Below, piece by piece: positions 33,461 to 60,166 of a stretch of DNA of 61,175 bases. Numbering within the stretch: the stretch's first letter is position 1; each line of letters starts with the position of its first letter. The notes under the pieces are model-generated. The model saw only the letters and a program-made list of their open reading frames with translations, made no database searches and had not been told where the DNA came from. This stretch comes from a virus: positions 1-61,175 of IMG/VR virus record IMGVR_UViG_3300037486_000366. One strand, given 5' to 3'. The translations under genes were made by a program, and so were the position numbers.

Positions 33461-33700
33461 TTATATATAAGACAACGTTAAGTAATCAGACCAACGCTGA
33501 TTAAACCTATCATCACCATCAGGATATTTTATAATTAAGCTTGATGTTTCATCGAGACGTTTAATTTGCCAAACATATTCAGAATCAAGTGCTCCTGGTT
33601 TAGCTTTACCAATATATGTAATTGGGGCAACTTCAACCATTCTTAATGTATATTCTTGACTTATTATCCTAACTACTTCATGTCCAGCAAAAATTTCCAT
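33461..33700 (-). CDS. Small hypothetical virion-operon protein (79 aa)
   Basis: A compact strand-rich protein (MEIFAGHEVVRIISQEY, YVWQIKRLDETSSLII). It starts one base inside the end of the 2,884-residue protein and precedes the spike-like gene. No family recognised. It could join internal and tail components. Confidence 0.6.
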   Translation of the reverse strand: MEIFAGHEVVRIISQEYTLRMVEVAPITYIGKAKPGALDSEYVWQIKRLDETSSLIIKYPDGDDRFNQRWSDYLTLSYI

Positions 33701-36700: not shown

Positions 36701-39700
36701 ACTATATAACCTTTCATCTTTTTAGAAGTAGATTCTAGTTCACGCAAACCTTCTTTAGAAACTCTAGAAAATTTCCCAGGTTTATCATATCTAGCCGCAG
36801 TAAAACGTTTACTAAAGTTACCTGTATAAAATGAAGGGGGTACTTTTTCTCCTTCATTAAGTCTAACTACGTCATCAATATAATTAGCTAAGTTTACCTG
36901 ATCTTCTGAAGATATTGTTGCTTTATCTTTTCCAAGAACTGGGACATTTTCAAGTTTAAATGATGGAACCAGCTCTAATAGTTCTGCTTTATCTGCCTCA
37001 TTACTAAACACATCATCAAAGAATTTTTGTTCAGTTGGCGTAAGATATGTTCTAATTTCCTTTTTAGTTGGCTCTAATTCTTCTAACATAGACTTTATTT
37101 CATTCTTATACAAATTAATTGTTTCTATGTCAGGAATATCTTTACTCTTCTCAACCACAATCTTTTTTTCAAGAAGGTCAATTACACTATTGGTTCTTAA
37201 TAAATGATTTTCTTCTGCAGATCTTTTTCCTGGGATAATGTTTGCTACTCTATCTTTAAAATTATCATAAAGAACCTTATCTTCTTTAGAGATAAAATCT
37301 ATTACATTAGTTTTTTCAGTATAAAGATTTTGTAAATCTTTAAAAGATAAAATTTCTTCCTGCCCATCAATAATAAATTTAAGGTCAGTTACTTTTGTAG
37401 CAGGGTCTATCTTAACTTCATTATCTTGAACCCCTTCACTTTCAATGGCTTTAGTGGGAAAAATGATAGCCACAGAAATTTTATCATTAGCCCCATAAGC
37501 AACTATCGGGGAAATATTACTGATTAATTGTGCAGATATTCCAGGGTAGCCTTCAAAATCTTCCCCAACAAATAACTCATTATTCTCTACAATTGAACGA
37601 AGTTCATCGATCGTAGTTATCCTTGTAGCTGTATTAGGTTTAATTGTTCCTACATAAAGTTTATTTTTTAAATTGTCTTTTAAAGCAATCTTCGTACCAA
37701 CTGATTTTTCTATTGAAATAGGAGTTGCTTTATTAAAAGCTTCCTTAATTTCTTCCATTGTAACTATTACTTTAGGATATGTAACGATTGCCTTACGCCC
37801 TACTAAATTATCGAGAGCTTCAAATTCATGACTAGGTTTTTCTGCAAGAAAACGTTGGCTTCGAGCTAACAAGGCTTTGATGTCACCATCCGTATAAGTT
37901 TTTACTATTCCCCAATCACGAAACTTATTGCGAACAAAGGCTATAATCTTTTCCCATAATGTTTCAGATAATTGATTTTTAGGGTCTTGTGCTTGAAATG
38001 CTAAAAATTCTTCAGCAGCTAATAATTGACCACGATTACCACTAGTGCCTGATGAATCACCTTCAATAGACTCATCTATTTCGTATTCTTTCACAACTGT
38101 CTTCATTAAAGGTGTATCTTTATAACTACTATATATTTGGCGCAAAATAGGTTTAAATTCTTCTACACCTAGCATTTCCCACATGCCATGATGAACTAAT
38201 GCTTCATGTAAAAGAGTGCCAAGTGCTTCATCTAAATCTGCAATCTGATCTGCAAAAAGATGAATAGCAATATACCCATCATTATTTGGCCAATATACTC
38301 CAGGAATAAATTGCGTCTCAAGGTCAGCGTTTAAAAGAATATCAACAGGGACGTCTGGATGATAAATAGAATCATAGATCGTGACTATAGGTAAACCTGG
38401 ATGTTCTTCAACAAACTTGTCAATATGGGTCGCAATATCTTTTGCTTTTAAGTTCCCTGCTTTTTCATGTGTTCTTGGTTGTTTGACCTTAGCAAATTTT
38501 TTAGGAATAGCAGTTAATTTATCTTTTTGAAGAATTTCAATATTATTTTCATCAAAATCTATTCCTGTACCATGTTTACCAACTTTAGCTGCCTTAACTC
38601 CAACAAGAGTAGTTGCTACCTTATTAAAGTAATCTATTAAACCATCAATTTGTCGATCAAACTGACTCTTTTCTTCTGAAGTTGCAAAATGAGTGTTTAA
38701 TAAGCCATCATCAAATGATGCTGATAATTGGCCTAGGTAATCAGACAAATGAACCAGGTTGACTTTACTTTCGTCACCAAGATGCCATCGATTATTAATC
38801 ATAGTAGACAATGCGTTTAATAAAGAGGGTAAATCTCCCGTTGTCTTGGGGACTAACGTATTTGTCTTTTTATTAAGGGTTAATACTCGAGTTGAAAGGT
38901 CTTTGTTTTCTTGAGCCGTTTGAAACAAGGGATTTAAGGCTATAAGCTTATGCTTCTTTGCAACAGGTTTCTCTTTTGCAATCTCAGCACGAAGAGCCAT
39001 TTCTTCACGTTTCTCTTCTTCAATTCTATCATCAACCATTTCCTGAATTTCTTTTTCACTTAATTCAGAAAAGTCAGTAGAGAACATATCATATAAATCA
39101 GCTCGACGTTCTTTTTCTTCTTGTTCAGTCATTAAAGGAACTTCAAGCGGGGCAATTTCTTCTTCAGGTTCTTCGACTTTTTCTTCTGTTATTTTTGCCA
39201 TTGCACGTTGATCTGCTGCTTCCTCACGTTCCTCTTCAGTCATCGTGCCTTTTTCTTTCCAAGTACCTTCAGTAGTCTGTTTCCATTGTTTAACAAGGGT
39301 TTTATGCTCAGCAACTTCTTCAGTTGGAACAGCTTCACCTTGCTGTAGTCTTGCTAGAACGTTACGATAACGGGCTTTCTTTTTTAGTGTCTTCTTTACT
39401 TCTGGTAAAGTTTTAATAGAAGGTTCACCTACATAAACATAAGATAAAGTAACCCCACCTTTAATATCTTTTTCAATTTGAGATATATTAGAAAAATCAG
39501 GTTTATTTTTTTCACCAACAAACTCAAATGTATGTTGTGAATATGTTTTATTTTTTAAGACACTTGAAATAGCTTCAGGTAAAGTGTTATAGGTTTCTTG
39601 CCTAATTAACTCTTGATTAGGTTCTATACTTTCTTGTTTATGTTCAACTATATACTTTCCATCCTCCTCTGAAATATCTGCATAAGCTTTATCAAAGGTA

Positions 39701-42354
39701 GTAGAACGTTCAGAAAAATCACTTGCATTGACAAGTTGAGTTTTAAGGTTTTTAATCTCAGTCATTACTTCTGGTAAAGTTTTGCCAGTCTCTGTGGTAC
39801 TAGTACCTGTATCGACTTTACCTTGCTCGATAACCCCTGTAACCACTGCTCCAGTGACTGGCTTGGGAGGACGTCCAGGTTTTCGCTTAGGTCCTGGTTC
39901 AACTGCAGGTCTTTCTTTCTTAGGTCTTCCAACCTTTTTCTTAATCGCTTCTTCAAGGATTGCATCTCCTTTCGCTTCAACCTTTGTGCCATTTTCAAGT
40001 TCAACTTTTACAGTAACATCTTTTAAATCTTCTTTTGCTATTCTATCAAGAATACGTTTAGAAGAAACTATATCTGAAGCAATAATTATTGTGGACGTTT
40101 TTTCTTGAGCTTGCTTAGCTTTTCTTTTAAGCTCTCCTTTTTTGGTTGCTCGTTTTTCTTCTTTAGAAAGGGGTGTTTCGCGTTGTTCTTGAACATTTCC
40201 ACTTGCTGTAATCTTTCCTTCGCCTGTTCCTGTGACAGGTCCGGTTTTGACAGGTTTTTCCCCTTGCTGGACTTTACTTGATAGCCTTGCGATGTTTGTA
40301 CGATCACTTGTAATCTCCTTTCGTTTCGCAATCCACTGTTCCTTGCCTTCTTCTGTATGACCTATTTTTGTAGGTTCATACATATTAAAAATACCAGGCA
40401 TCTTCTGCTCAAGTTTACGTAAAGTAAGTAAAACACTCCCTTTTGAAGTAAAAGCATTTCCCTTAGCTGTCCTAATTTCCGCAGGCACTTCACCAGTAGC
40501 AGTTGGGGTAATTTTCTTTAGCCGTTGTGTTTCTAATCCTCGCTGAATAAGATCAGAAAAAACTTTAGGAACAGCAATCCAGGCTTTAGTATTTAATCTG
40601 AAAGGTACTAGTTCTTTTTCTTTATTAGCTTCTTTTATTGCTTTCTTTGTAACTGCTTCTGAAACAAAGGGTATTTCTTCTCCAGCTTTGTTTTGACTTG
40701 TTAATGATACTTTACGAATTAATTCTGGTAAAGACATTAACGTTCCAATATTCTTTTCATGAGTAAAAGAGTCGGGAGTATGCGCTTCAGAAATAGGCCG
40801 CATGACTGGGTTGCCCTGCTCATCTACGATATGAGAAGATTGAACCATCATAGGAGAAGGAACAATAGGTCCCCGCGCCCCCATAATGGTCTGAGCTAAT
40901 TGAGTCGCACGATTTTCATCAAAACCACGTTTAATGAAATCATCTTTGAAAAAATTAAACAGTTCATACCCAATAATTCGTCTACCAGTTTTTTCATTTT
41001 CTGGGTGAAGTTCTTCTTGCTGAGTAACTTCTTTTGGTGTTTCAATTCCACGTTCCTCAAACTTTTTGACATCTTCAGAAAGTTGTTGTTCAAGGAAACG
41101 TTCCTTAGTCATCTCTTGAAATGTTCTTAATGACTCAAGGTTCTTGTTTAACTCCATTGGTTCTTGATTAACTATCTTATATGCCGCATACTCTTGCCAT
41201 TTAGAAGCAAGATCAGTATCATTAGTTCCATCTAGTTTCTTAAGTTCATTAAAGACTATTTCTGCAGCACGATGTCTATCAGATACATCAGCCTCAGCAT
41301 CTTCTAAAACCTTTGTTACTTGCCCCCGCATCTTTGCCCCACGACCATGACCTACTCCAGCAAATAATAGTGAGGCAAAAAATGTAGGACCTATTGCTTG
41401 TAAAGCCTGTTCTTCAGGAGAAGTCTCTTGAGGTAAACCTGCTTCTTCACGAAACCTTCCTTCAAGATAGCTCTGAGCCATTTCAGTTGGAATTTCAACA
41501 GCTGATAATTTTCCGACTGTAGCCGCATAATCTTTTACACCAGCCGTAGTTCCACGTTCAAGTAACTGTTTAACTGTTTTTGTTGCTGCACGACCGACAC
41601 CTAACCTATCAAGAAACGACCCAATAACAAGGTCACCTGTAAATTCAAGGCCAGCTTCCTGAATAGCAGAAGCAGCTGCCCATGGTTTCCATTCATTATC
41701 TGTTATTGCAAATTGAGGATTTTTCTGATTAAACTTATAGACGTCTTCTGCGAATTGATCATATTCTTGAAGACCAAATGCAATACCACCACCAAGTGCT
41801 CCGGTAGCAATACCTCCTACTCGTCTACCTAATTCAGCTGCTTGTGGAGTTTTACCTATTGCCATACCTAGTGCAGCACCTAACGCTTGACCTGGTTCTG
41901 AGGCAATCAGAATAGGCATAATAGACTGCACAAAACTACGAGAACCCTCAAATACAGAGGTACGAAAAACATTTCCTGCTGACCATGGATCACCTGTTAA
42001 TGTTGGTTGTTTAAAAACACTTGGGAGAGCATTTTCTATCTCTGGTTTTTTCTCAATAAACCAAGTAGCAACAACATCTTTCAGTCCCTGATCTTCATCT
42101 TTAACATTACCGAGACGAATATCGCGTGCTAACATTTCAATTGAACTCAATAAACCAGCAGCAAGACCAGCTGGTAAATCACCGATGACCCCCATCCAAC
42201 TGCTTCGTACAGGAGTAGGTGGTTCTGGTGGATTTATGCTAGCAAGATCTTGTTGTACTTCAGTTAAGCCTTGGTAAATATTTGTAGGTTCAGCACCAGG
42301 AGTACCTACAGAACCAGCCATGTCACGAGCAAATTGTTCAAGGTCAAACGCCAT
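33700..42354 (-). CDS. Giant polyvalent virion/ejection protein with metallopeptidase-like domain (2,884 aa)
   Basis: By far the largest gene. The first about 330 residues have glycine/alanine-rich, membrane-prone segments (LPAGLAAGLLSSIEML; LGAALGMAIGKTPQAAELG). Lys/Pro/Glu-rich linkers follow at about 730-860 and 1080-1180. Around residue 1383, LLHEALVHHGMWEML is an HExxH-like zinc motif following IPGVYWPNNDGYIAIHLFAD, as in metallopeptidase domains of polyvalent proteins. The last 900 residues are helical and include YTFQKFPHNYLQMLYD near 2,595, typical of DNA-ejection or polyvalent proteins. It is probably packaged in the capsid and injected with DNA to build a channel or process host targets. 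No RNA polymerase motifs were seen. Confidence 0.8.
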   Translation of the reverse strand: MAFDLEQFARDMAGSVGTPGAEPTNIYQGLTEVQQDLASINPPEPPTPVRSSWMGVIGDLPAGLAAGLLSSIEMLARDIRLGNVKDEDQGLKDVVATWFIEKKPEIENALPSVFKQPTLTGDPWSAGNVFRTSVFEGSRSFVQSIMPILIASEPGQALGAALGMAIGKTPQAAELGRRVGGIATGALGGGIAFGLQEYDQFAEDVYKFNQKNPQFAITDNEWKPWAAASAIQEAGLEFTGDLVIGSFLDRLGVGRAATKTVKQLLERGTTAGVKDYAATVGKLSAVEIPTEMAQSYLEGRFREEAGLPQETSPEEQALQAIGPTFFASLLFAGVGHGRGAKMRGQVTKVLEDAEADVSDRHRAAEIVFNELKKLDGTNDTDLASKWQEYAAYKIVNQEPMELNKNLESLRTFQEMTKERFLEQQLSEDVKKFEERGIETPKEVTQQEELHPENEKTGRRIIGYELFNFFKDDFIKRGFDENRATQLAQTIMGARGPIVPSPMMVQSSHIVDEQGNPVMRPISEAHTPDSFTHEKNIGTLMSLPELIRKVSLTSQNKAGEEIPFVSEAVTKKAIKEANKEKELVPFRLNTKAWIAVPKVFSDLIQRGLETQRLKKITPTATGEVPAEIRTAKGNAFTSKGSVLLTLRKLEQKMPGIFNMYEPTKIGHTEEGKEQWIAKRKEITSDRTNIARLSSKVQQGEKPVKTGPVTGTGEGKITASGNVQEQRETPLSKEEKRATKKGELKRKAKQAQEKTSTIIIASDIVSSKRILDRIAKEDLKDVTVKVELENGTKVEAKGDAILEEAIKKKVGRPKKERPAVEPGPKRKPGRPPKPVTGAVVTGVIEQGKVDTGTSTTETGKTLPEVMTEIKNLKTQLVNASDFSERSTTFDKAYADISEEDGKYIVEHKQESIEPNQELIRQETYNTLPEAISSVLKNKTYSQHTFEFVGEKNKPDFSNISQIEKDIKGGVTLSYVYVGEPSIKTLPEVKKTLKKKARYRNVLARLQQGEAVPTEEVAEHKTLVKQWKQTTEGTWKEKGTMTEEEREEAADQRAMAKITEEKVEEPEEEIAPLEVPLMTEQEEKERRADLYDMFSTDFSELSEKEIQEMVDDRIEEEKREEMALRAEIAKEKPVAKKHKLIALNPLFQTAQENKDLSTRVLTLNKKTNTLVPKTTGDLPSLLNALSTMINNRWHLGDESKVNLVHLSDYLGQLSASFDDGLLNTHFATSEEKSQFDRQIDGLIDYFNKVATTLVGVKAAKVGKHGTGIDFDENNIEILQKDKLTAIPKKFAKVKQPRTHEKAGNLKAKDIATHIDKFVEEHPGLPIVTIYDSIYHPDVPVDILLNADLETQFIPGVYWPNNDGYIAIHLFADQIADLDEALGTLLHEALVHHGMWEMLGVEEFKPILRQIYSSYKDTPLMKTVVKEYEIDESIEGDSSGTSGNRGQLLAAEEFLAFQAQDPKNQLSETLWEKIIAFVRNKFRDWGIVKTYTDGDIKALLARSQRFLAEKPSHEFEALDNLVGRKAIVTYPKVIVTMEEIKEAFNKATPISIEKSVGTKIALKDNLKNKLYVGTIKPNTATRITTIDELRSIVENNELFVGEDFEGYPGISAQLISNISPIVAYGANDKISVAIIFPTKAIESEGVQDNEVKIDPATKVTDLKFIIDGQEEILSFKDLQNLYTEKTNVIDFISKEDKVLYDNFKDRVANIIPGKRSAEENHLLRTNSVIDLLEKKIVVEKSKDIPDIETINLYKNEIKSMLEELEPTKKEIRTYLTPTEQKFFDDVFSNEADKAELLELVPSFKLENVPVLGKDKATISSEDQVNLANYIDDVVRLNEGEKVPPSFYTGNFSKRFTAARYDKPGKFSRVSKEGLRELESTSKKMKGYIVKDYGKVMIPNPRAGEYNEKKGFIQPNRLRVDKIIGLRKVDKVFKNEATNTFVIEFTDGSSRSFSNTEFQEMYRKQNVQVEKAKQPIKYAKVSKQGTLDPNLNELDPAVLKNFWGEEAKALLKTISAQRPRNLPALTFMERLLRSPEWYSHPVLRKLVDLAIKRHDRYYELFHTLDEIENSDETVSQRTTALRNKGLTRWQIVRGETSDDYKLFSRIVDEGDTGEWREKVDNPDMSYLQYLENQNIPQDVLELYKAHRVAYDKALDLLMEPLVKTVTEVEDEAKAKNKKPQYPQFQTYDEEGKITTVNLKEVLHTMGQLKGSYAPRLREVGEWEVVGKRGEEEEVRYHKSNRLAAERLAASLTRQGFTIEPIKERERLHEDVYGNLRLVSIHQAINLAMKGTKLEAPELRMKFENELLDNIADIIKARGFRGSMIRRRKDKIVRGYIVDPGERFVRYVGNISAGLAKAEAAKNMFSTITGKYVTDEEGSKKKVGGIDEQKERRAYEVATKYVEEQLRNADNTDRLIGYAKSVASFKYLGFNPRTLFVNVLALGTTVPTAIHQYVMGGKGSLASIGAEITRSSKDYIGVMRGQELPNANEQKLVDEIHEKGYDMPQYMQDAMGTLQRTHGRIWNQSLGLALFGFKKSEQWIRGSTILAAYRLAKKNNPDLTHDEAVAKAYDASNKAHAVYGKATLPSYALGKNPAAKLFQMLYTFQKFPHNYLQMLYDVGFKKKNVKGFLYGLMSPIFLAGMAVAPLKDIWVGIFNALLRLLGIKVDAEKWFWDKTRKSMGKSSETILRHGLIGALGLDVSGSLNINAGLPRNMYELLGVGGGLVKDVGDALHYTKLGEYGRAAEKTLPTGIGNLFKAYRELSGVTTTKGTPVFNNQGMPYKASAFETGARVLGFRSAQQATMVERRSEALMERENFTQMRDDIYEQYRNSLMSNDSKMLQKTMDKVVQYNNLVVRYNLGGQVPVITKESLKRQAKALYVPNKAERVRLLE

Positions 42355-46000: not shown

Positions 46001-46204
46001 TTATAATTTTGGCCTCGATACAATTATAGCAATCATTGATCCTACTACTGAAAGTAAAGTTACAATAACCCACCCTAATATTTGATTAAACTTACTCGAT
46101 AAGCATGAGTGCAATAGTTCCTGTTTTTTAAATAAGTCAGCACACATCTTATCTATATTCTCATGTTTTTCGTCACAAAGTTCTTTGATATACTCCTTCG
46201 TCAT
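46001..46204 (-). CDS. Small membrane protein with coiled coil, lysis-region (67 aa)
   Basis: A charged helical N-terminus (EYIKELCDEKHENIDKM) is followed by one transmembrane segment (LGWVIVTLLSVVGSMIAIIV) and a short basic tail. The layout is like XhlA-type or holin-partner proteins. It overlaps the 3-TM holin gene by 4 bp, so it may modulate lysis timing. Confidence 0.65.
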   Translation of the reverse strand: MTKEYIKELCDEKHENIDKMCADLFKKQELLHSCLSSKFNQILGWVIVTLLSVVGSMIAIIVSRPKL

Positions 46205-46698
46205 TTACCATTCCTCGTTTTTTCCCAGCTTCGTAAACCACCCATTCCAAGTAAAGCTGCCACCAAACCAAGAATCTCCTCTGCGTGAAAAGTATTTGGA
46301 TAAGGAGGCATCACTGCCGCTGCAACATTAGTTGTATTGTAAAGAATCATAAAGCACTGAGTTATCCAAACGAAGGACGCAATTAGTGCTTGTGGAATAT
46401 AATAAGCTCCAAGAGAAATACCACAAACCCAACCTATAAATGGTCGCCAACCAGCAACAAACACATTCGCACTTGCCGCCTCTATCTTGTTTATTTCAAC
46501 CTGTCCCTGATCAATAAGCGCCTGTAATTCAGCCCCTCGTTGTATAAGCCTAGCTTCTTCTTCTGGACTTACTTTACCTCTGATTGCAGAGGCAATATCT
46601 TGAATGAAGCCGCCAATACCCTCAAAAACTTTCTTTACCCCTTCGCCAGCTTCTCTCACAACATTACCATCTATCTTAACATCAGAAATAAGCCCCAT
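46201..46698 (-). CDS. Holin, 3-TM GTA-type (165 aa)
   Basis: The segment NVFVAGWRPFIGWVCGISLG is the hallmark of the Holin_3TMs (GTA-holin) family. Further hydrophobic segments are YIPQALIASFVWITQCFMIL and EEILGLVAALLGMGGL. The N-terminal part is an amphipathic/coiled region (ARLIQRGAELQALIDQGQVE). It would form lesions letting the M15 endolysin reach the wall. It lies away from the endolysin (28747), which is unusual but seen in other phages. Confidence 0.82.
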   Translation of the reverse strand: MGLISDVKIDGNVVREAGEGVKKVFEGIGGFIQDIASAIRGKVSPEEEARLIQRGAELQALIDQGQVEINKIEAASANVFVAGWRPFIGWVCGISLGAYYIPQALIASFVWITQCFMILYNTTNVAAAVMPPYPNTFHAEEILGLVAALLGMGGLRSWEKTRNGK

Positions 46699-46710: not shown

Positions 46711-47412
46711 TTACGCAAAAATATCAGTTCCAATAAATGGTTTATCAAAACCTGACAATATACAGGCATGATTTGCAAAGTCTAATGCAACATTTAAATT
46801 TAATACAGGAACTTTATAAGCTTCATTATTAGTACAACATTGTCTATATCGTAAAAAATGAAGAGCAATTTTATCTTCATCTTCAGAAGTAAGTTCATCT
46901 TTATATTGCATTGACCTAAACATTATATGTATCTTACCAAATGACTTCGGGCTATGACAAAATCTTGCCTTCACATCAAGATTAGGGTAATACTGAGAAA
47001 GATAAGTATTAATATACTGTATATCTAATGGGCAAAACCAACAACGCATTTCATATGGCAATTCATTATCAATACAAATTTGTGCTGCTTTTAAACAGGG
47101 CACACTCCCTTTAAGTGCTTTTGCTGGTTCGGTAAACTCTGCCCCTAACTTCCCATCATAGAAATATCCTTCAAGATATTGTTTCCAATTAATATTCCAC
47201 CCAGTTAATAAAGCAAATCCTGGCCAATCATACATATAAGCAGTTTTATTAGCAATCATCCAAGTAAGACAATCAAGATGAGACTGTTTAACGTCACTCA
47301 TAGTTATACTCTGGACTATATTAACTGGATATGCCCACATTGCTCGTCCTAAAAGATATTGTTTAAGCACTGATAATTGTACAGTATCTGTTATTGTATA
47401 TGTCCAATTCAT
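46711..47412 (-). CDS. Unknown protein of the radical-SAM cassette (233 aa)
   Basis: No domain recognised. It is rich in Trp/Tyr/Cys (TYMYDWPGFALLTGWNINW is close to its pattern; RCWFCPLD at about 123; RYRQCCTNNEAY near 195). A WFC cluster could bind metal. It overlaps the glycosyltransferase gene by ATGA, so it belongs to the coupled string 51663-46711. It may be a modifying enzyme, a partner or a structural subunit. A GT-A or acyltransferase-like enzyme cannot be excluded. Confidence 0.6.
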   Translation of the reverse strand: MNWTYTITDTVQLSVLKQYLLGRAMWAYPVNIVQSITMSDVKQSHLDCLTWMIANKTAYMYDWPGFALLTGWNINWKQYLEGYFYDGKLGAEFTEPAKALKGSVPCLKAAQICIDNELPYEMRCWFCPLDIQYINTYLSQYYPNLDVKARFCHSPKSFGKIHIMFRSMQYKDELTSEDEDKIALHFLRYRQCCTNNEAYKVPVLNLNVALDFANHACILSGFDKPFIGTDIFA

Positions 47413-48398
47413 AATAATGCTATAAACTCCTGTTTAAATTGTTCATAGTTAAATCTTTCTTTACCTGCCAATGCTATTATATGGGCTTCTTTTTCAAAAC
47501 TGGAAAGATCAGCATTTTTTATTTCCAAAAGATTTGCTATCATAGTATCAACATCATTTGTTTCATAATGAAGACCATCACACCAATTTACCCAATTTCC
47601 ATCAAACGTTCCAGAGTTCCTATCATTTACAATTAATGGAATTGTCCCAGTAAAAATAGCTTGCATAATAGTTGCATTAAAAGGTTCATACCCATCATGT
47701 GGTAAAATAAAGAATTTATAGTTATTAAGTTCTTTAGGCACCTCTGACTGTTTAATAAAGCTATTTAACTTTAAATTACCTGAGGATTGTGCACTAAACA
47801 ATAGATCATAGTAATCATTTTTAGATATAGGAAAAGACCAAGTCCAAGAAGGTTCTTCAGCATTCCACATTTTCCCAAAACACTCAATAAACAAGTCAGT
47901 TTGTTTTATCTTCTGAATAAACTCAACAGAAAATTTATGAGGAAGAACATGCCCAAAATAACAGAATAAGTTACGTTTGTTCCATGGAATCACGTAAGAA
48001 AAAATATCTGCTGTTGGGTAAAAACGATTCAATATTTTTGAATCATACAGAGTAGTAACAGCAGCAGGTTTCTTATTCAATATAACTATATATTCTGCCT
48101 TATTAAATAGTGGAACATACTCAGGTAAAAATAATTCTTTCCAAACATGTGCAATAACAATTAAACGTGTTGATGGATTATCAGTAATATAATTAAGAAT
48201 ATGTGTTATGACATTCGGGTAAAGCTCATTTAAAATAATTAAATCAGGAGTAAGTAAACTAAATGCATCATAGTAATTAATTCCTTGTTGCTTTATTACT
48301 GATATATCTGGATTTGCTTCTTTTACCCATTCACCAATAATTGAACCATAGTATTCAATGGCTGAACCAACATTAAGATTTACAAATACTATTTTCAT
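47409..48398 (-). CDS. Glycosyltransferase, GT-B-like (329 aa)
   Basis: Two Rossmann halves are apparent: KIVFVNLNVGSAIEYYG with LIVIAHVWKELFLPEY in the first, and NLFCYFGHVLPHKFSVEFI with YKFFILPHDGYEPFNATIM and QAIFTGTIPLIVND in the second. The latter is the nucleotide-sugar-binding E-x-F-x6-A-x3-G-x-IP pattern of GT4-type enzymes. Being coupled to radical-SAM genes and near Thr/Ser-rich repeat proteins, it may glycosylate those Thr/Ser. That is an inference. DNA or host glycans are alternatives. Confidence 0.75.
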   Translation of the reverse strand: MKIVFVNLNVGSAIEYYGSIIGEWVKEANPDISVIKQQGINYYDAFSLLTPDLIILNELYPNVITHILNYITDNPSTRLIVIAHVWKELFLPEYVPLFNKAEYIVILNKKPAAVTTLYDSKILNRFYPTADIFSYVIPWNKRNLFCYFGHVLPHKFSVEFIQKIKQTDLFIECFGKMWNAEEPSWTWSFPISKNDYYDLLFSAQSSGNLKLNSFIKQSEVPKELNNYKFFILPHDGYEPFNATIMQAIFTGTIPLIVNDRNSGTFDGNWVNWCDGLHYETNDVDTMIANLLEIKNADLSSFEKEAHIIALAGKERFNYEQFKQEFIALL

Positions 48399-48874
48399 TC
48401 TTTACTCCTTAAGGAATCGAGATACATCTTTGTAAACTCAATTGTTGGAAGCATATAAATCTTTTCTAATGCTTCTATTCTATGAAACAGTCTTTTTGTC
48501 ATATAAAACAAATCTTCAAGTGAATGTCTCATTCGATAGATTGCCTCAACTCGGTTTATTGCGTCACTAATATATTTATCTTTAACGGAACTTTCATTCC
48601 AGCTTTTAATTAAAAAGCAATATTTTTCAATAAACATGGCAAATTCCTTGGTTATTGGAACCTCAAAAAACACCCCAAAAAATGTATCTAACCACTTTGA
48701 AACCATAGGAATTTGTTCTTGTGCTAACTTATCTTCCCCATCAACTAATTTAATACATGAAGTAGCAACATTATTAATCTGTGCTCTGATCTCATCAAGG
48801 TGAGGACCTTTAAATGGAGATAATTCTACTTCTTTTAAGAGCTCTAAACTAAGTTTTTCAATTTGATCTTTCAT
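48395..48874 (-). CDS. Helical protein of the radical-SAM cassette (159 aa)
   Basis: All-helical in appearance (KLSLELLKEVELSPFKG, INRVEAIYRMRHSLEDL, KRLFHRIEALEKIYML). No known family. It overlaps both neighbours by ATGA and lies between the SPASM protein and glycosyltransferase. It could be a precursor-binding or chaperone-like partner; an RRE-type (PqqD-like) fold is not apparent. Confidence 0.6.
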   Translation of the reverse strand: MKDQIEKLSLELLKEVELSPFKGPHLDEIRAQINNVATSCIKLVDGEDKLAQEQIPMVSKWLDTFFGVFFEVPITKEFAMFIEKYCFLIKSWNESSVKDKYISDAINRVEAIYRMRHSLEDLFYMTKRLFHRIEALEKIYMLPTIEFTKMYLDSLRSKE

Positions 48875-50043
48875 AAAGTATTCCTTAATGAGTCTATTAT
48901 TTCATGTTTATGGTGAATAAGTTGACACACAGAAGGAATTGGGGTAAACATATCCCCAGTTGATTCATACTGTGCCCCTAAACATTGCCCCATACACTTA
49001 TCTTTTATTCCACACATATTACAATATGGTTGATTCTTAAAATCACAATAATGAGTTGCTACATACAGAGTAAAATTCTTTTCATTTGTCCCAACAATCT
49101 TATTCTCTTCCACTTTCATATCAAATAATTCAAACTCTTTATACATTAACCTATGACAGGGAAAACTTTTTAAATCACCCAAACGAATATGATAATGAGG
49201 TTGAAGAGCACATGCCAAACCTTTATTTGTTTTAGCATAAATATTAGTTAAAATATTAAAACCTTTATGTTGGGCGAATAAATCATTAACATTTCCTTTG
49301 CTTGCTAAATACCCCATAAGATAAGTAATAAATTTTCCATATTGTTTTATTTGTTCTTCTGACCATTCTGCATTACGTACTTCTAATAAGTATAGAAAGA
49401 ACCATGGAAAATCATATAATTTAAGCATATCTTGGAACCAATTAAAGTTATCAATCCATCGTTCTATACCATTAGAATACACCATTGGGTGAAAACCAAC
49501 ATCTCCAGTTTTCTTAACAAATTCAAAGGCTGTATTATACCAGTATTGATCCCTATGACCATAAATACATGGGCGATTTTCATCATCCATGAACGGTCCA
49601 TCAAAAGAAGCGCTATTAAACAATATTGCTCCTTTATCTTTAAACTTTTTCTTATATGAAAATATCTTGTCCTCATTACCAGTAAAAATAAAATTAAAGT
49701 TTGTGGGAACAACACAACGCAACCCTGACCAGGCATAAGAAAGAATTAAATCAAGTAATTCAAACCCTATTTGTTGTGAGTAAAGTTCTCCTGAAAATAT
49801 CTCAAGATTAGGTTTCCAATTATTTTTTTTCAACCACTCAAATACTAATACTGCATTAGAAATAATTTTTTCTTCATCTTGTGTTCCTGAAGGAAATAAC
49901 TTATCTCTATGTCTATGAATATAACAGTAAGTGCACATATTATCACATTTACCATTAACAATAAGTTCAAGGGTAAAAAACGAATTTTCTTTCTCCCAAG
50001 CTTTATAGAATGTACGCGATAATAAATTATCAAGTAAAGTCAT
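48871..50043 (-). CDS. Radical SAM protein with SPASM domain (390 aa)
   Basis: The [4Fe-4S]-SAM motif CDNMCTYC is near residue 33. LEIFSGELYSQQ is the GGE-equivalent region, and FNSASFDGPF fits the next strand. The C-terminus has a full SPASM-like cysteine set: ACALQPHYHIRLGDLKSFPC, then YCNMCGIKDKCMGQC and a final Cys in PSVCQL (spacing C-x2-C-x5-C-x3-C). SPASM enzymes commonly modify ribosomal peptides or activate enzymes. It overlaps the other radical-SAM gene by 14 bp, so both are made together. Confidence 0.88.
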   Translation of the reverse strand: MTLLDNLLSRTFYKAWEKENSFFTLELIVNGKCDNMCTYCYIHRHRDKLFPSGTQDEEKIISNAVLVFEWLKKNNWKPNLEIFSGELYSQQIGFELLDLILSYAWSGLRCVVPTNFNFIFTGNEDKIFSYKKKFKDKGAILFNSASFDGPFMDDENRPCIYGHRDQYWYNTAFEFVKKTGDVGFHPMVYSNGIERWIDNFNWFQDMLKLYDFPWFFLYLLEVRNAEWSEEQIKQYGKFITYLMGYLASKGNVNDLFAQHKGFNILTNIYAKTNKGLACALQPHYHIRLGDLKSFPCHRLMYKEFELFDMKVEENKIVGTNEKNFTLYVATHYCDFKNQPYCNMCGIKDKCMGQCLGAQYESTGDMFTPIPSVCQLIHHKHEIIDSLRNTL

Positions 50044-51214
50044 TCATAACCTCAGCAATATATTTATCATATTCAGCATAACAAAAAAGTTGAATAAGGT
50101 TCAAATCAACTAAGTTGATAGATCCCATATTTATCAATTCAGCTTTACATGCTCCAGTAACCATGACCAATAATAAAGACATAAATGATCGACGTTGTGG
50201 ATCATTATAAACATCACTTATTTTATTTGCTAATAACAACTCAATCATTAACATATTAACTAATGCAAGACGAAAAGCATAATAACGATGAAAACCATTA
50301 ATAAGATATAAAAACCGTGAACTATCTTCCACAAATGAATATTCTTTCCTAAACTTTTGTTGTGGAAATAAGAAATATTGACACAGTGTTTTTTCCTTTA
50401 CTGTTGTAGCAATTGCAGATCTTCCAGCTGAACACTGGGCTCCATAATGATATGAAGAAAAATCAGACAAATTTAATATAGTATTTATAAACAAGGGCTC
50501 CATGGGATAAACTACATATGGAACAGTCTTTCTTAACTGCTTCATATGCTCAATAACTATTTTAAATGCTTGTATTTGCTCATCAGTATAGTTTCCAGGA
50601 TAACACGGTCCAGGAGCAAGACAAACATAATTATCTCTATATCCTGCTTTAATTAAAATATCAGTAACATTTTTCATATAACTATAGTATTCATATATCA
50701 TCTGAACGTTTTTAGCAAGATAAGTATAATGTTCTGGCCCCCATGTAACTTTATATCTCATAGTTAAATTTTTATACGTATGTTCTGTTACAAAATCAAG
50801 CAGCCCTTGTAATCCAGCATGTATTTGCTCATGTTTCTTTCTTCCTATTTTTGTGAGTTCTGGAGGGCCATCTATTGAAAACTGAACATCTAATTTAAAA
50901 TTATAAAGCTCTACTTTTTTAATAAATCTTTTTACTGGGGCAATATCTATAAGGTTTGTTGAGAACATAATCTTTTTTAAGTTTTTAAAACGATTAACAA
51001 TATAATCAAGATCATCAATTAAATAATCAAGATTAATAGTAGGTTCTCCTCCCCATAAACTTAGGTCTTCAATCTCTAATGGGACATTTTCCCATATTTT
51101 TCTACTTTTAATGCTATGTATAACTTCATCATTATTCATAGTTTTATCTAATAAACAATATGAACAATCGAGTTGACATTTAGATGATAATAATATTTGT
51201 GACCCTATAAACAT
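50030..51214 (-). CDS. Radical SAM protein (394 aa), likely peptide maturase
   Basis: CQLDCSYC near residue 13 is the radical-SAM cluster motif. LSLWGGEPTINLD has the GGEP that binds SAM, and QFSIDGPPELTK matches the following strand. C-terminal cysteines (QCSAGRSAIATTVKEKTLC) suggest a second, SPASM/twitch-type cluster, less complete than in its partner. It starts 2 bp after the repeat-protein gene, the usual distance for a precursor-maturase pair. Substrate inferred, not shown. Confidence 0.88.
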   Translation of the reverse strand: MFIGSQILLSSKCQLDCSYCLLDKTMNNDEVIHSIKSRKIWENVPLEIEDLSLWGGEPTINLDYLIDDLDYIVNRFKNLKKIMFSTNLIDIAPVKRFIKKVELYNFKLDVQFSIDGPPELTKIGRKKHEQIHAGLQGLLDFVTEHTYKNLTMRYKVTWGPEHYTYLAKNVQMIYEYYSYMKNVTDILIKAGYRDNYVCLAPGPCYPGNYTDEQIQAFKIVIEHMKQLRKTVPYVVYPMEPLFINTILNLSDFSSYHYGAQCSAGRSAIATTVKEKTLCQYFLFPQQKFRKEYSFVEDSSRFLYLINGFHRYYAFRLALVNMLMIELLLANKISDVYNDPQRRSFMSLLLVMVTGACKAELINMGSINLVDLNLIQLFCYAEYDKYIAEVMNDFT

Positions 51215-51216
51215 AA

Positions 51217-51663
51217 TTAAGAAATACCTGCATTATTATAAGTACCATTATAACCGGTATTATGTGTACTATAATGTGTTGTATAATGTGTAGCCCTATA
51301 AGTAGTAAGATTAGAAGATAAATGCGTAGTATAATGAGTAGCACAATAACTTGCATTATGTGTTGCTAAGTAAGTAACAAGATTAGAGGCTAAATGTGTT
51401 GCTAAATAAGTTGCATAATAAGTATGACAGTAATTATTAGTATGAGCTTCATCAAGGGCAGTTCGTAATTGAAGATAATCCATTGTACCTGTACCAGAAT
51501 CCTGTCTTGTAGGATCATATTGTGCTGGTGTTCTACTCCATGAATAGGCTCCTAAACCTGTTAATGAACGTAAAGTATCTATATTCGTCTGTAGTTCAGT
51601 AACATGAGAGGCTTTAGGTTTTGTTACATATTGTGTAAGTGCTTCAGCCCATGAAAAAGACAT
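51217..51663 (-). CDS. Tetrapeptide-repeat protein B (148 aa), candidate radical-SAM substrate
   Basis: Residues 1-75 form a leader-like helical region starting MSFSWAEALTQYV. From residue 78 to 142 there are 17 consecutive tetrads in which every fourth residue is His, Tyr or Asn. It is preceded by Thr or Ser in 15 of 17 (for example LATHLASNLVTYLATH). The end is NNAGIS. A GAGGAGAAAAACAAA leader supports the ATG at 51663 over a longer frame. It is followed after 2 bp by the radical-SAM genes. It may be a tail appendage, a metal-binding rod, or a precursor. Confidence 0.8.
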   Translation of the reverse strand: MSFSWAEALTQYVTKPKASHVTELQTNIDTLRSLTGLGAYSWSRTPAQYDPTRQDSGTGTMDYLQLRTALDEAHTNNYCHTYYATYLATHLASNLVTYLATHNASYCATHYTTHLSSNLTTYRATHYTTHYSTHNTGYNGTYNNAGIS

Positions 51664-51692
51664 TTTGTTTTTCTCCTCTTGAGTAGCGACCG

Positions 51693-52040
51693 CTACCCGC
51701 CAATTGCCCCACCGCAATCACCAGAAAGAAAACCATTCCAATGAGTCCCATAGTGAGCTCCTCTATTAGTAGCATAATGGGGGACTAAATTAGTAACAAG
51801 ATAGGTACCACAATAACTTGCATCATGAGTAGCTAAATAAGTAGTAAGATTAGAAGATAAGTGTGTAGTATAATGAGTGGGGCAATAACTTGCATTATAT
51901 GCAGTTAAATGAGTGGTATGGTGAGTTGCACAATAAGCAAGATTATTATGAAGCCAATCAGAATTATCTCGTATTTCTTGAACATCTACACGTTCATCGT
52001 TTAATCTTTGTGCAATAGTTTGTGCCCATGTAAAAGCCAT
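51693..52040 (-). CDS. Tetrapeptide-repeat protein A (115 aa), paralogue of B
   Basis: It has the same plan as protein B: a short helical N-terminus starting MAFTWAQTIAQRL, then 17 tetrads from residue 36 to 100 with His/Tyr/Asn in every fourth place (YCATHHTTHLTAYNAS). The end is Gly-rich (FLSGDCGGAIGG). Three Cys follow Tyr in the tetrads (positions 37, 53, 77). It starts 1 bp after the fibre gene. Its equal repeat number with protein B suggests a shared structure or partnership. Confidence 0.8.
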   Translation of the reverse strand: MAFTWAQTIAQRLNDERVDVQEIRDNSDWLHNNLAYCATHHTTHLTAYNASYCPTHYTTHLSSNLTTYLATHDASYCGTYLVTNLVPHYATNRGAHYGTHWNGFLSGDCGGAIGG

Positions 52041-52041
52041 C

Positions 52042-53265
52042 TTATTTCACCTTTACCCAATGTCGTTTTCGTACTTCTATACCATTCCAGATAGGGTTCA
52101 ATTCTTCCCTCAAAAAAGTAGCTATAATTCTTTCCGGGTAATTTTTACAAGATACTCTTGTCATTCTCGTAAGTTTACCATTTTTATCACTAGTTAAAGG
52201 TGTACCAGGAACATACACTCTATCAACACAGGCAAGAACATACCCAGCCACAGAAATAGGAATACTGTTCTTCTTAACCCCAACCCCGAAACCATAAGTA
52301 TCAGAAGCAATTCCAATTATTCCTACTTGACAGTATTGAGTTGATAAGGTAACTTCCCTGCCTTTCATTACGTATACTCTACCAAATTCAATTTTAAGTT
52401 TATGCTCTAACTCCAAGAAGTCAGCAATATCATTATAAACTGCATTATATATTTTTCCTGAAGAAAGTCTTCCATGTGTATCTGGAGTTTCTGATGGGGC
52501 TGATGCATCAGAATGCCAAATAATAGCGAGGTTTTGAGCACTTGCATTTTGAAAATAAAACTGTGCTGCTGCACCATCAGCTGCAGTATTTTTAAATGTT
52601 ATAGTAGTGCCACAAACTATGGTTGCACTATTTGCTGTAATTGTGCCCCCAGTACTAACTAAAGTAAGTCCAGAAATTGTACCAGAAGCAGCAGTAATAT
52701 TACCAGAACTTGTTAATGTAGCCCCAGATATTGTACCAGAAGAAGCAGTAATGTTGCCAGTACTAATAAGAGTAGCCCCAGAGATTGTACCAGCCGCTGC
52801 AGTAATATTACCAGTACTAACAAGAGTACCTGCAGAAATTGTACCAGAAGCAGCAGTAATATTGCCAGAGGCTGTTAGAGTAGTAACATCAAGTCTTTGT
52901 GCGCTACCCCACCAAGCTTGTTCTCTTGGAAGATTCGTAACTGTTGCGGTACCTGCACCTCCAAACACTTGATATGGTCCTGCTTCTACAGTACCATTAA
53001 TTGTCAGGGTTTTAAGAGCAGTAACAGTTAAAAGACAACCTTTAGGAAGTTTTAATGTTACATTTGCTGGAATAGTTAAATTATCAGTCACAGTCCATGT
53101 GCCTGGACGAAGAAGCAAAGTAACTGTATCACCACCAATTGCTGCTAATGCAGTATTTAATGTTGCTAAAGTAAAATTATTACTTGTCCCATATCTTACT
53201 AAAGCATCTACTTCATTAAGAACATGAAGACCACCAATTAAAGTTCCAGCAAGTAATTGTGCCAT
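52042..53265 (-). CDS. Tail fibre with beta-repeats and chaperone/peptidase_G2-like C-terminus (407 aa)
   Basis: The start reads like a right-handed beta-helix cap (GDTVTLLLRPGTWTVTDNL, ANVTLKLPKGCLL). Then come about five repeats of roughly 17 residues (SGNITAASGTISGATL...). The C-terminal 150 residues (VYNDIADFLELEHKL, YCQVGIIGIASDTYGFGVG, VAGYVLACVDRVYVPGTPL) resemble the intramolecular-chaperone/Peptidase_G2 domain that trims and trimerises tail proteins. It is probably a side fibre, and it directly precedes the tetrapeptide-repeat genes. Confidence 0.75.
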   Translation of the reverse strand: MAQLLAGTLIGGLHVLNEVDALVRYGTSNNFTLATLNTALAAIGGDTVTLLLRPGTWTVTDNLTIPANVTLKLPKGCLLTVTALKTLTINGTVEAGPYQVFGGAGTATVTNLPREQAWWGSAQRLDVTTLTASGNITAASGTISAGTLVSTGNITAAAGTISGATLISTGNITASSGTISGATLTSSGNITAASGTISGLTLVSTGGTITANSATIVCGTTITFKNTAADGAAAQFYFQNASAQNLAIIWHSDASAPSETPDTHGRLSSGKIYNAVYNDIADFLELEHKLKIEFGRVYVMKGREVTLSTQYCQVGIIGIASDTYGFGVGVKKNSIPISVAGYVLACVDRVYVPGTPLTSDKNGKLTRMTRVSCKNYPERIIATFLREELNPIWNGIEVRKRHWVKVK

Positions 53266-56884: not shown

Positions 56885-57538
56885 TCACCAATTTGAAAAT
56901 GGAGGTTGTTGAACTCTAAAAGATAAACGTGTTCTACCAGTCTTTTTTATCTTTTTAGCAGTTGACCTATCTGCCTGAAATAAATCTTCAAAATATTCTC
57001 CCTCACGAATATTTGTCCAGGCTTGTTTAGGTAACTTAAAAATACGCCCGAATACTCCATACTTAATACAATCAAACCAATCATCGTAGATATAATCAGG
57101 AATTACTGTTGCAGTCAACTTTGGTTTTAAAGAAGCCCAAATTTCAAGGCCACCAGCAACACTTTCAGTTGGGATATACCTGAAACGAAATATTTTCTCA
57201 ATATCTGCTAAATAAGTGATTTGACCAGAAGAGGTCTGTTGGCGCCAAGCATCTGCACTACTATCAAGGACTTCCATTGAATCTGGAGTAAGAAATCCTC
57301 CAGAGAATTCAGCTCGTTCTACATTAACAACTGATGCTTGTAAAGCTACTGGGGCAACTAAAGCATATTCTGCTACACCTATTGTTACATTAATTGCGTC
57401 TAGTTTTTCCTGCCATGTACCAGTCGTAGCACAGAAATCACGAATTGAATTCATTACTTCGCGATCAATTATGTCTTTTGGACAACCAGGAATACCCTCT
57501 GAAACATCAGCTAACCAATCATTAATAGAGTAAGGCAT
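56885..57538 (-). CDS. Head-tail adaptor / tail-tube-A-like protein (217 aa)
   Basis: The start YSINDWLADVSEGIPGCPKD is followed by MNSIRDFCATTGTWQEKLDA and IYDDWFDCIKYGVFGRIFKL. These features recur in T7 gp11-like tail tubular A or adaptor proteins, as I recall. It is the first gene after a strong leftward terminator. It therefore depends on read-through or another promoter, which would lower its expression relative to capsid. Confidence 0.68.
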   Translation of the reverse strand: MPYSINDWLADVSEGIPGCPKDIIDREVMNSIRDFCATTGTWQEKLDAINVTIGVAEYALVAPVALQASVVNVERAEFSGGFLTPDSMEVLDSSADAWRQQTSSGQITYLADIEKIFRFRYIPTESVAGGLEIWASLKPKLTATVIPDYIYDDWFDCIKYGVFGRIFKLPKQAWTNIREGEYFEDLFQADRSTAKKIKKTGRTRLSFRVQQPPFSNW

Positions 57539-59164: not shown

Positions 59165-60166
59165 TTACGGATTGAGTGTAACAGAAGTCTCAGCTCGCAG
59201 CATCCAAGCATCATTAAGGATAACTGCTTTCTGCATTGACTTCCATGATACGTGGCCTCTCTGTGCTAACGGGTCACTATCACTTGGGGTTGGATTAACG
59301 ACCATAGGAACAATAGCATTGGGTCCTTTCAGAGGAACAATACCATATGCGTTTGAACCAAGATAAATGATCGGATATATATCAGCGTTTGTCCCAGCAG
59401 TAGAAATCATTTCTGTACCAGAACCTGATTTTGCCGCCCCACCATCTGCCCAAGGAACAAAAATAGTGGAGTAAATATACCGGACATCTTCAACCTTACC
59501 GATTTCAGACTCATACGGTGTAAGCTGTCCATACTCTTCCACAGGCACGAAACCAGGAAGATTACGAATGTCTGCTTCACAATCAGAGTGACAAAGGGCA
59601 ATAAAGGCCGGCGCAACGTTAGCAGTACCGAAAGCTGCAGTTGATCGAACAACTTTACTGATCTTCTTGGCCATCTGGCGTTTAAGATAACGAGTGATTC
59701 TTCGTTGCAGAGAAAGAGTAATAGGGGTATTGACATCAGTACGCTGCGTACCATTTGCATAATACACATTTGTTCCAGCTTTAATAACCCCGAAACGTGC
59801 TACTTCAACCATCTGAGCAGCTTGTTCTCCAAGGACTTCCTGAGCTTCTTTGAAAACTGGATCTTCGTGAGTGTCCTGGATAACGTCAGTAATAGTAATT
59901 CTATCACCAAGCTGTTCGAGGGTGACTGATACATCCGTAGAGGTAAGCTGTTTTCCAGTAGGCGTCACCCCTTCAACAAGCACATTAGGAGTATTGTCCA
60001 AGGAATTGTATCGCCTGAAATTCATGGTCTTTGAATTGTTTGCAGGTAATGGTTTTGCCTGCCCAAATTTTTCTATTACAAGATAAGGAAGAGCTCTTTC
60101 AAGAAATTCCTTAGCTGCAAATGCTGCAGTACGAGGAGATATATCTCCATATTTAGTTATAGCCAT
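59165..60166 (-). CDS. Major capsid protein, N4-gp56 family (333 aa)
   Basis: HK97-fold shell protein. Family features: the N-terminal AKEFLERALPYLVIEKFG, the conserved LVEGVTPTGKQLTSTDVSVT, LEQLGDRITITDVIQDTHED and LGEQAAQMVEVAR, and RYLKRQMAKKISK. At 333 residues its length is typical. AGGAGGTCTAACGT precedes the ATG. The upstream gene is scaffold-like, as expected. No N4-type virion RNA polymerase is encoded, so only the capsid lineage is shared. Confidence 0.92.
   Translation of the reverse strand: MAITKYGDISPRTAAFAAKEFLERALPYLVIEKFGQAKPLPANNSKTMNFRRYNSLDNTPNVLVEGVTPTGKQLTSTDVSVTLEQLGDRITITDVIQDTHEDPVFKEAQEVLGEQAAQMVEVARFGVIKAGTNVYYANGTQRTDVNTPITLSLQRRITRYLKRQMAKKISKVVRSTAAFGTANVAPAFIALCHSDCEADIRNLPGFVPVEEYGQLTPYESEIGKVEDVRYIYSTIFVPWADGGAAKSGSGTEMISTAGTNADIYPIIYLGSNAYGIVPLKGPNAIVPMVVNPTPSDSDPLAQRGHVSWKSMQKAVILNDAWMLRAETSVTLNP

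What the first reader, a model, noticed from the sequence alone, without database searches (positions are those of the whole stretch)
46711..52040. Phage cassette: tetrapeptide-repeat proteins + two radical-SAM enzymes + glycosyltransferase inside the virion operon
Two repeat proteins (51693-52040, 51217-51663) are followed 2 bp later by two radical-SAM proteins (50030-51214; 48871-50043, the latter with a complete SPASM cysteine set). Then come a helical protein, a GT-B-like glycosyltransferase and an unknown protein, with 4-14 bp overlaps between successive genes from the first radical-SAM gene on. Seen directly: order, overlaps, CxxxCxxC and SPASM motifs, repeats. Known: SPASM enzymes often mature ribosomal peptides encoded beside them. 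Inferred: the repeats are modified (cross-links, epimers or similar) and perhaps glycosylated to make an unusual tail appendage. This would be a RiPP-like maturation system serving a phage particle.
Basis: partly seen in the sequence, partly recalled or inferred. Interest (0 to 1): 0.93.

Follow-up and report, generated by a model that had tools for sequence, protein, structure and literature searches.

The report
Phage enzymes modifying a repeat protein
Many uncultured viruses of bacteria and perhaps archaea carry, between their tail and lysis genes, two radical-SAM enzymes beside proteins built from strict four-residue repeats, which suggests that these phages chemically remodel one of their own late proteins the way microbes mature modified peptides.

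Summary
Two tetrapeptide-repeat proteins lie 2 bp from a tightly overlapping rSAM1-rSAM2-helical protein-glycosyltransferase run, between a fibre-like gene and a holin gene. Searches with rSAM2 found the module in about 30 non-redundant viral or virus-like contigs. In 24 of 31 readable modules, four-residue-register proteins, nearly all sharing a ~45-residue N-terminal domain, lie directly upstream of or between the enzymes. Periodic proteins are 36 of 104 ORFs there and 1 of 498 elsewhere (P = 3e-29). A conserved N-domain, a junction Cys and a fast-changing but in-register core look like leader plus core. rSAM2 is a full SPASM enzyme whose predicted fold resembles peptide modifiers (anSME, CteB, ChlB, TigE). 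Best reading: a RiPP-like maturation system for a repeat protein of the virion. Modification, chemistry and virion location are not shown. The glycosyltransferase is optional (8 modules). An obligatory aromatic cross-link is unlikely family-wide, as some cores hold almost no aromatics at the third position. No phage or plasmid record searched holds a close relative, and no paper found describes it.

The parts
52042..53265 (-). fibre-like protein directly upstream; its C-terminal domain is shared by the gene upstream of the module in several relatives
   Evidence: weak FapA beta-solenoid match; blastp 55% to L009, 41% to L003/L008, 44% to L019
51693..52040 (-). rep1: one N-terminal domain plus tetrad core (115 aa)
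   Evidence: lag-4 z = 7.0; N-domain E = 5.1e-17
51217..51663 (-). rep2: N-terminal domain, a second divergent LRTALDEAH unit, then tetrad core (148 aa)
   Evidence: lag-4 z = 5.2; N-domain E = 2.2e-15
50030..51214 (-). rSAM1: radical-SAM enzyme with CxxxCxxC and two further invariant Cys
   Evidence: PF13353 6.2e-7 above cut-off; phrog_1802 4.5e-17; 20-member alignment A10
48871..50043 (-). rSAM2: radical-SAM enzyme with complete seven-Cys SPASM domain
   Evidence: SPASM domain TIGR04085 3.6e-5, 24.1 bits against a 27-bit cut-off; invariant Cys; AlphaFold model pLDDT 89.7, anSME/CteB/ChlB/TigE as best PDB folds
48395..48874 (-). conserved all-helical partner protein
   Evidence: homologues in the tetrad-type modules; model pLDDT 89.4, all helical; no assignable fold
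47409..48398 (-). glycosyltransferase (GT-B / Glycos_transf_1-like), optional component
   Evidence: family in 8 non-redundant modules; L012 member hits PF00534 at 1.8e-8
46711..47412 (-). unknown protein, translationally coupled (4-bp overlap) but with no homologue in the other modules
   Evidence: no family match; blastp against ORFs of all loci finds only itself
46201..46698 (-). holin, marks the downstream end (lysis region)
   Evidence: PF11351 2.3e-9; phrog_3427 7.5e-18

Best explanation
A virus-encoded, RiPP-like maturation module. The two repeat proteins are the substrates: the ~45-residue N-terminal domain is the recognition (and perhaps anchoring) part, and the tetrad core that starts near a conserved Cys is the modified part. 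rSAM1 and rSAM2, probably helped by the helical protein, act repeatedly along the core and install one small change per tetrad or per few tetrads (C-C or C-X cross-links, or another change at the alpha or beta carbon of the small Ser/Thr/Ala/Gly positions). In some phages a glycosyltransferase may decorate the Ser/Thr-rich core. The product is most likely a stiffened fibre or spike part of the particle, made just before lysis. Shown: gene order, shared register, N-domain, enzyme class, late-gene location, co-conservation. Inferred: that the repeats are the substrate, the chemistry, and the virion location.
For: Same module in about 30 non-redundant contigs found through the enzyme, not the repeats. 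Periodic proteins in 36 of 104 ORFs upstream of or between the enzymes against 1 of 498 elsewhere. Shared N-domain in repeat proteins of nearly all tetrad modules with W, E, R and a junction Cys invariant in 12 single-copy types. Cores change fast (34-49% identical) while N-domains (52-86%) and enzymes (53-81%) are kept, and the register persists. Rearranged modules L016 and L019 keep all members: rSAM1-helical-rep-rep-rSAM2-helical. rSAM2 fold is nearest to enzymes that modify peptides or proteins; rSAM1 profile neighbours include cyclophane formers. Tail or fibre genes lie upstream and lysis genes downstream in relatives.
Against: No modification has been seen. Some related modules lack tetrads: L047 has no recognisable repeat, and L029/L031/L032/L034/L035/L048 have other low-complexity neighbours. 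No leader peptidase or known recognition element was identified. Adjacency of late genes could in part reflect operon position alone.
Confidence: 0.7

Rival explanations
1. The modified repeat protein is not a particle part but a released RiPP-like effector, freed at lysis, that acts on neighbouring cells or competing phages.
For: Leader/core anatomy and fast core evolution are also those of secreted RiPPs; lysis genes follow the module, so no exporter is needed.
Against: No protease, transporter or immunity gene recurs in the modules; the module sits beside tail or fibre genes in relatives, and a gene for a fibre-like protein with a shared C-terminal domain precedes it in several.
Confidence: 0.13
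2. The rSAM enzymes act on another target (the upstream fibre, a host protein, or a sugar together with the glycosyltransferase), and the repeat proteins are late-operon neighbours with a purely structural role.
For: Virion location of the neighbourhood; two conserved gene groups in one operon can be co-inherited; L047 keeps the enzymes without recognisable repeats.
Against: The enzymes stay with the repeats even when the order changes (L016, L019); the fibre gene types vary while the repeat proteins with their N-domain persist; rSAM2 is of the peptide-modifying fold type.
Confidence: 0.12
3. The tetrads form an unmodified metal-binding or beta-turn fibre (for example a His ladder), and the enzymes are unrelated accessory genes.
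For: His or Tyr at 75% of third positions in the window would suit metal binding; iron-binding HxH motifs are known from phage needles (own knowledge, not tested here).
Against: Relatives keep the tetrad and the enzymes with almost no His or aromatic at that position (L019, L022, L038).
Confidence: 0.05

Closest known systems
His-Xaa-Ser system (HxsA repeat protein with paired radical-SAM maturases HxsB and HxsC, and HxsD)
   Same: Two different paired radical-SAM enzymes beside a repetitive substrate; weak profile matches of rSAM1 to HxsC and rSAM2 to HxsB; window tetrads contain [H/Y]-x-[S/T/A]
   Different: Scores far below cut-off (19.0 of 267.9 and 22.4 of 370 bits); period 4, not His-Xaa-Ser; no HxsD match; virus late operon; extra helical protein
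CXXX-repeat radical-SAM systems (TIGR04115) and Cys-every-fifth (CefB, NF038107)
   Same: Radical-SAM maturases named for substrates with a 4- or 5-residue period; some rSAM1 homologues match them weakly
   Different: Cys is rare in the phage tetrads (0-10 per module core); window rSAM1 scores 23.4 of 600 bits to CefB and does not match TIGR04115 at 0.001
TvgA/TvgB and TigE (enzymes on TVGG- or TIGSVS-type repeats forming cyclopropylglycine)
   Same: One SPASM enzyme acting many times along a short repeat (PMC9062424); TigE (8vpo) is the top PDB sequence-profile match of rSAM2 and a close fold match
   Different: No conserved Val/Ile at one tetrad position; two enzymes; viral
Triceptides (three-residue cyclophane formers: XncB, OscB/GrrM, MscB, YhhB)
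   Same: rSAM1 homologues match GrrM/OscB, YhhB and AmcB models; Phe-x-Ser linkages between residues i and i+2 are known (PMC11002830)
   Different: Third tetrad position is aromatic or His in only 0-6% in L019, L022, L038; matches are sub-threshold
Radical-SAM genes of Campylobacter phages CP220/CPt10 and of Thermus phages phiMa/Cumys
   Same: Radical-SAM genes carried by phages (PMC2853527, PMC11437467)
   Different: CPt10 enzyme only ~24% identical and no tetrad protein beside it; the Thermus rSAM module pairs the enzyme with a DUF483 protein, per the paper

Membership tests
Radical SAM enzymes with SPASM domain (rSAM2) | CxxxCxxC plus the seven-Cys SPASM motif and matching fold | tested here: met
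   20 of 20 homologues keep CxxxCxxC and CX2CX5CX3C...C, two more Cys invariant; PDB fold matches to SPASM enzymes
Radical SAM enzymes with SPASM domain (rSAM1) | full seven-Cys SPASM motif | tested here: not met
   CxxxCxxC in 20 of 20 but CX2CX5CX3C...C in 0 of 20; two invariant later Cys only
RiPP-type system | precursor with conserved leader and variable core encoded beside the maturase | tested here: met
   N-domain shared across modules; core 34-49% against N-domain 52-86% identical in close pairs
RiPP-type system | enzymatic modification of the core | not testable with these tools
   needs expression and mass spectrometry
RiPP-type system | leader removal and release of a small product | tested here: inconclusive
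   no recurring protease or exporter seen in module neighbourhoods; host proteases not excluded
His-Xaa-Ser (Hxs) system | maturases reach the HxsB/HxsC curated cut-offs | tested here: not met
   22.4 of 370 bits and 19.0 of 267.9 bits
His-Xaa-Ser (Hxs) system | HxsD partner present | tested here: not met
   no NCBIfam match for the helical, GT or unknown protein at E 0.1
CXXX-repeat system | Cys at every fourth residue of the substrate | tested here: not met
   0-10 Cys per module core of 35-640 residues
Triceptide (three-residue cyclophane) system | aromatic residue at i in every modified motif | tested here: not met
   75% in the window but 0-6% in L019, L022, L038; not met as a family-wide rule, open for the window
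PapB family ranthipeptide maturases | curated cut-off of NF047865 | tested here: not met
   34.8 and 34.7 of 340 bits for rSAM1 and rSAM2

The most novel reading that the evidence does not exclude
A widespread class of viruses, many of anoxic habitats, builds a post-translationally remodelled, repeat-based particle part (spike or fibre) with its own pair of radical-SAM maturases: RiPP-type chemistry used as virion architecture.
Probability: 0.5. Interest if true: 0.95.

Novelty: new variant of a known kind. Interest (0 to 1): 0.85.

Why it matters
If true, virus particles would contain a part made by radical peptide chemistry, which is known to me from natural products and a few cellular enzymes and proteins but not from virions. 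It would give a fibre whose sequence varies while its register, and presumably its chemistry, stay, which bears on host recognition in phages without cultured relatives. It also offers about 30 enzyme pairs with long repetitive substrates, good material for finding new radical-SAM chemistry. The claim is directly testable by co-expression and mass spectrometry.

Tried and rejected
Single-protein searches with the window enzymes found nothing; a DNA pattern for the repeat gave the first relative, and its other three matches (L002, L004, L005) are chance. The Vibrio phage JSF20 match to rep1 is an unannotated stretch at the end of the record, rejected. A viperin-like defence role for rSAM1 (PADLOC pVip 1.8e-6) is rejected: the NCBIfam viperin score is 18.6 of 180 bits. 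The helical protein has no trustworthy fold match in PDB or BFVD and only middling helical-bundle Z-scores. Phage isolates hold only Campylobacter phages with one distant rSAM, none for gut-type enzymes; plasmids none. Host chromosomes: no further carriers among 397 and 285 genomes of two host groups. The converse scan for the N-domain recovered only L033 and L012, both with the enzymes, but its sensitivity is low; a wider alignment could not be scanned. Exact-identity autocorrelation missed many relatives, so a small/large Fourier score was used. Core identities rest on alignments of low-complexity sequence and are rough.

Full report
WHAT IS THERE. The window is a 61,175-base virus record. 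On the minus strand the late operon runs from the major head protein (59165-60166, phrog_1357, 2.4e-53) and a virion protein (56885-57538, phrog_437) through a fibre-like gene (52042-53265) to the cassette and then to a holin (46201-46698; PF11351, phrog_3427). The portal is of the SU10 type and there is a family A DNA polymerase. The cassette is as described: rep1 51693-52040, rep2 51217-51663, rSAM1 50030-51214, rSAM2 48871-50043, a helical protein 48395-48874, a glycosyltransferase 47409-48398 and an unknown protein 46711-47412, with a 2-bp gap and then overlaps of 14, 4, 4 and 4 bp.

THE REPEATS ARE REAL. Identity at lag 4 is 23% in rep1 (6.8% in shuffles, z = 7.0) and 20% in rep2 (8.5%, z = 5.2), above all 5000 shuffles; lags 2, 3, 5, 6 and 7 do not rise. 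Written in register the window cores read ATHY TTHL SSNL TTYL ATHD ASYC: small, Thr or small, His/Tyr/Asn, variable.

THE MODULE IS CONSERVED. Searches with the window proteins alone failed. A degenerate DNA pattern for the repeat found one true relative, L003, with fibre end, two repeat proteins, rSAM1, rSAM2, helical protein and GT in the same order (rSAM2 39% and GT 41% identical). With alignments of rSAM2, 29 viral contigs and 12 contigs from genome bins followed. The bins are called Thermoplasmata, Nanoarchaeia, Nanohalarchaeota, Diapherotrites, Thermoprotei, Omnitrophota, Ratteibacteria, Roseburia and Clostridium. Two of these contigs match IMG/VR contigs in length and match position (L037 and L012, L039 and L014), so the bins hold viral contigs and their names are weak host evidence. 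I screened 31 non-redundant modules with enough upstream sequence. In 24 of them tetrad proteins or proteins with the shared N-domain lie directly upstream of the enzymes or between them: 21 by the periodicity score and three more (L009, L013, L041) by the N-domain. Of the other seven, L031 and L034 have a 5-residue period (z 11.9 and 12.8), L029, L032, L035 and L048 have neighbours rich in Phe next to Asn, Asp, Gly, Ser or Thr, judged mostly by eye, and L047 has no recognisable repeat. A Fourier score for period 4 passes in 36 of 104 ORFs within 1.5 kb upstream of, or between, the rSAM genes, and in 1 of 498 other ORFs of the same loci (P = 3e-29); that one is a further repeat protein of L017. 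L008 (the L003 contig) was first found through its repeats and the window was given, so both are biased, but they contribute only four of the 36.

LEADER AND CORE. Repeat proteins of all tetrad modules except L017 and the truncated L043 share an N-terminal domain of about 45 residues, roughly M-x-[F/Y]-x-W...I...E-[I/V/L]-[R/K]-x-N-x-D, usually in a pair of genes, one with two copies of the domain and one with a single copy. In a 12-sequence alignment of single-copy types a Trp, a Glu, an Arg and a Cys near the start of the core are invariant. Between close relatives the N-domain is 52-86% identical and the two enzymes 53-81%, while the cores fall to 34-49% with indels, yet the register persists. 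This is the behaviour of leader plus core, and also of a structural anchor plus a fast-evolving exposed shaft; the two readings do not exclude each other.

THE ENZYMES. rSAM2 keeps CxxxCxxC and all seven SPASM Cys in 20 of 20. Its model (pLDDT 89.7) matches anSME, CteB, ChlB and TigE best, all enzymes acting on peptides or proteins (profile hits to TigE, CteB and ChlB). rSAM1 keeps CxxxCxxC and two invariant later Cys, without the CX2CX5CX3C half. Its NCBIfam neighbours are PapB and the cyclophane formers AmcB, YhhB and GrrM/OscB; those of rSAM2 are PapB, QhpD-type, nif11 and SCIFF maturases. For the window proteins all equivalog scores are far below the cut-offs, so the pair belongs to no named family in that library. 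The helical partner is found in most tetrad-type modules, once after each enzyme in L016 and L019, but has no clear fold relative. The GT family occurs in 8 non-redundant modules.

CHEMISTRY. Across 44 repeat proteins the tetrad is [S/G/A/T]-[T/G/S]-[Y/D/H/V/N]-[D/N/Y]. The two small positions are the constant feature; the third position is 75% aromatic or His in the window but 0-6% in L019, L022 and L038. A cross-link that needs an aromatic (three-residue cyclophanes, i to i+2, PMC11002830) may occur in the window but not as the family rule. A change on the small residues, or cross-links with varying partners, fits better. There is precedent for an rSAM enzyme acting many times along a short repeat (TvgB on TVGG, PMC9062424). 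This part is inference.

PHYLOGENY AND RECODED PHAGES. An rSAM2 tree sets the gut-type branch (L029, L031, L047, L048) apart from the tetrad branch with modest support (92/75 and 91/90). Two gut-type phages use altered codes: L032 needs TAG as Gln and L035 TGA as Trp; with these codes rSAM2 of L032 and rSAM1 of L035 read open.

LITERATURE. Ten searches of the held library found no description of phage tetrapeptide proteins with rSAM enzymes; reports of phage rSAM genes concern other genes (PMC2853527, PMC11437467). Most subscription journals are missing from the library, so novelty is provisional.

VERDICT. What remains unproven is the modification, its chemistry and the particle location.

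Noticed in passing
L032:9905-11299; L035:8490-9887: Module genes of two gut-type phages are broken in table 11 but open with TAG=Gln (L032, 2 codons) or TGA=Trp (L035, 4 codons), so recoded phages carry the module too.
   Followed up: partly
L016:304-4127 and L019:3201-5898: Upstream of these rearranged modules lie a transporter-like membrane protein and two further conserved genes; in L016 one of unknown type as well, function not assigned.
   Followed up: no
L009:6326-12787: A third radical-SAM-like gene (CxxxxCxxC variant) and a 1721-aa protein that looks like several fused glycosyltransferase/methyltransferase domains follow the module.
   Followed up: no
L010:15838-16047 (Campylobacter phage CPt10): A 69-aa protein made of CxNC-type repeats lies in a phage reported to carry 12 radical-SAM genes (PMC2853527); possibly another repetitive substrate.
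   Followed up: no
genome G002, contig C329 (source of L048): One Clostridium-binned contig of about 175 kb holds three rSAM2 copies at 48, 55 and 88 kb.
   Followed up: no
L013:2-4011: Long GYSG-repeat (collagen-like) proteins stand before the tetrad proteins in this contig.
   Followed up: no
window 33700-42354: A single ORF of 2884 aa in the late region, not identified here.
   Followed up: no
window 22636-24150: A primase-like protein matching the TOTE conflict-system primase domain (PF22548, 1.1e-13).
   Followed up: no
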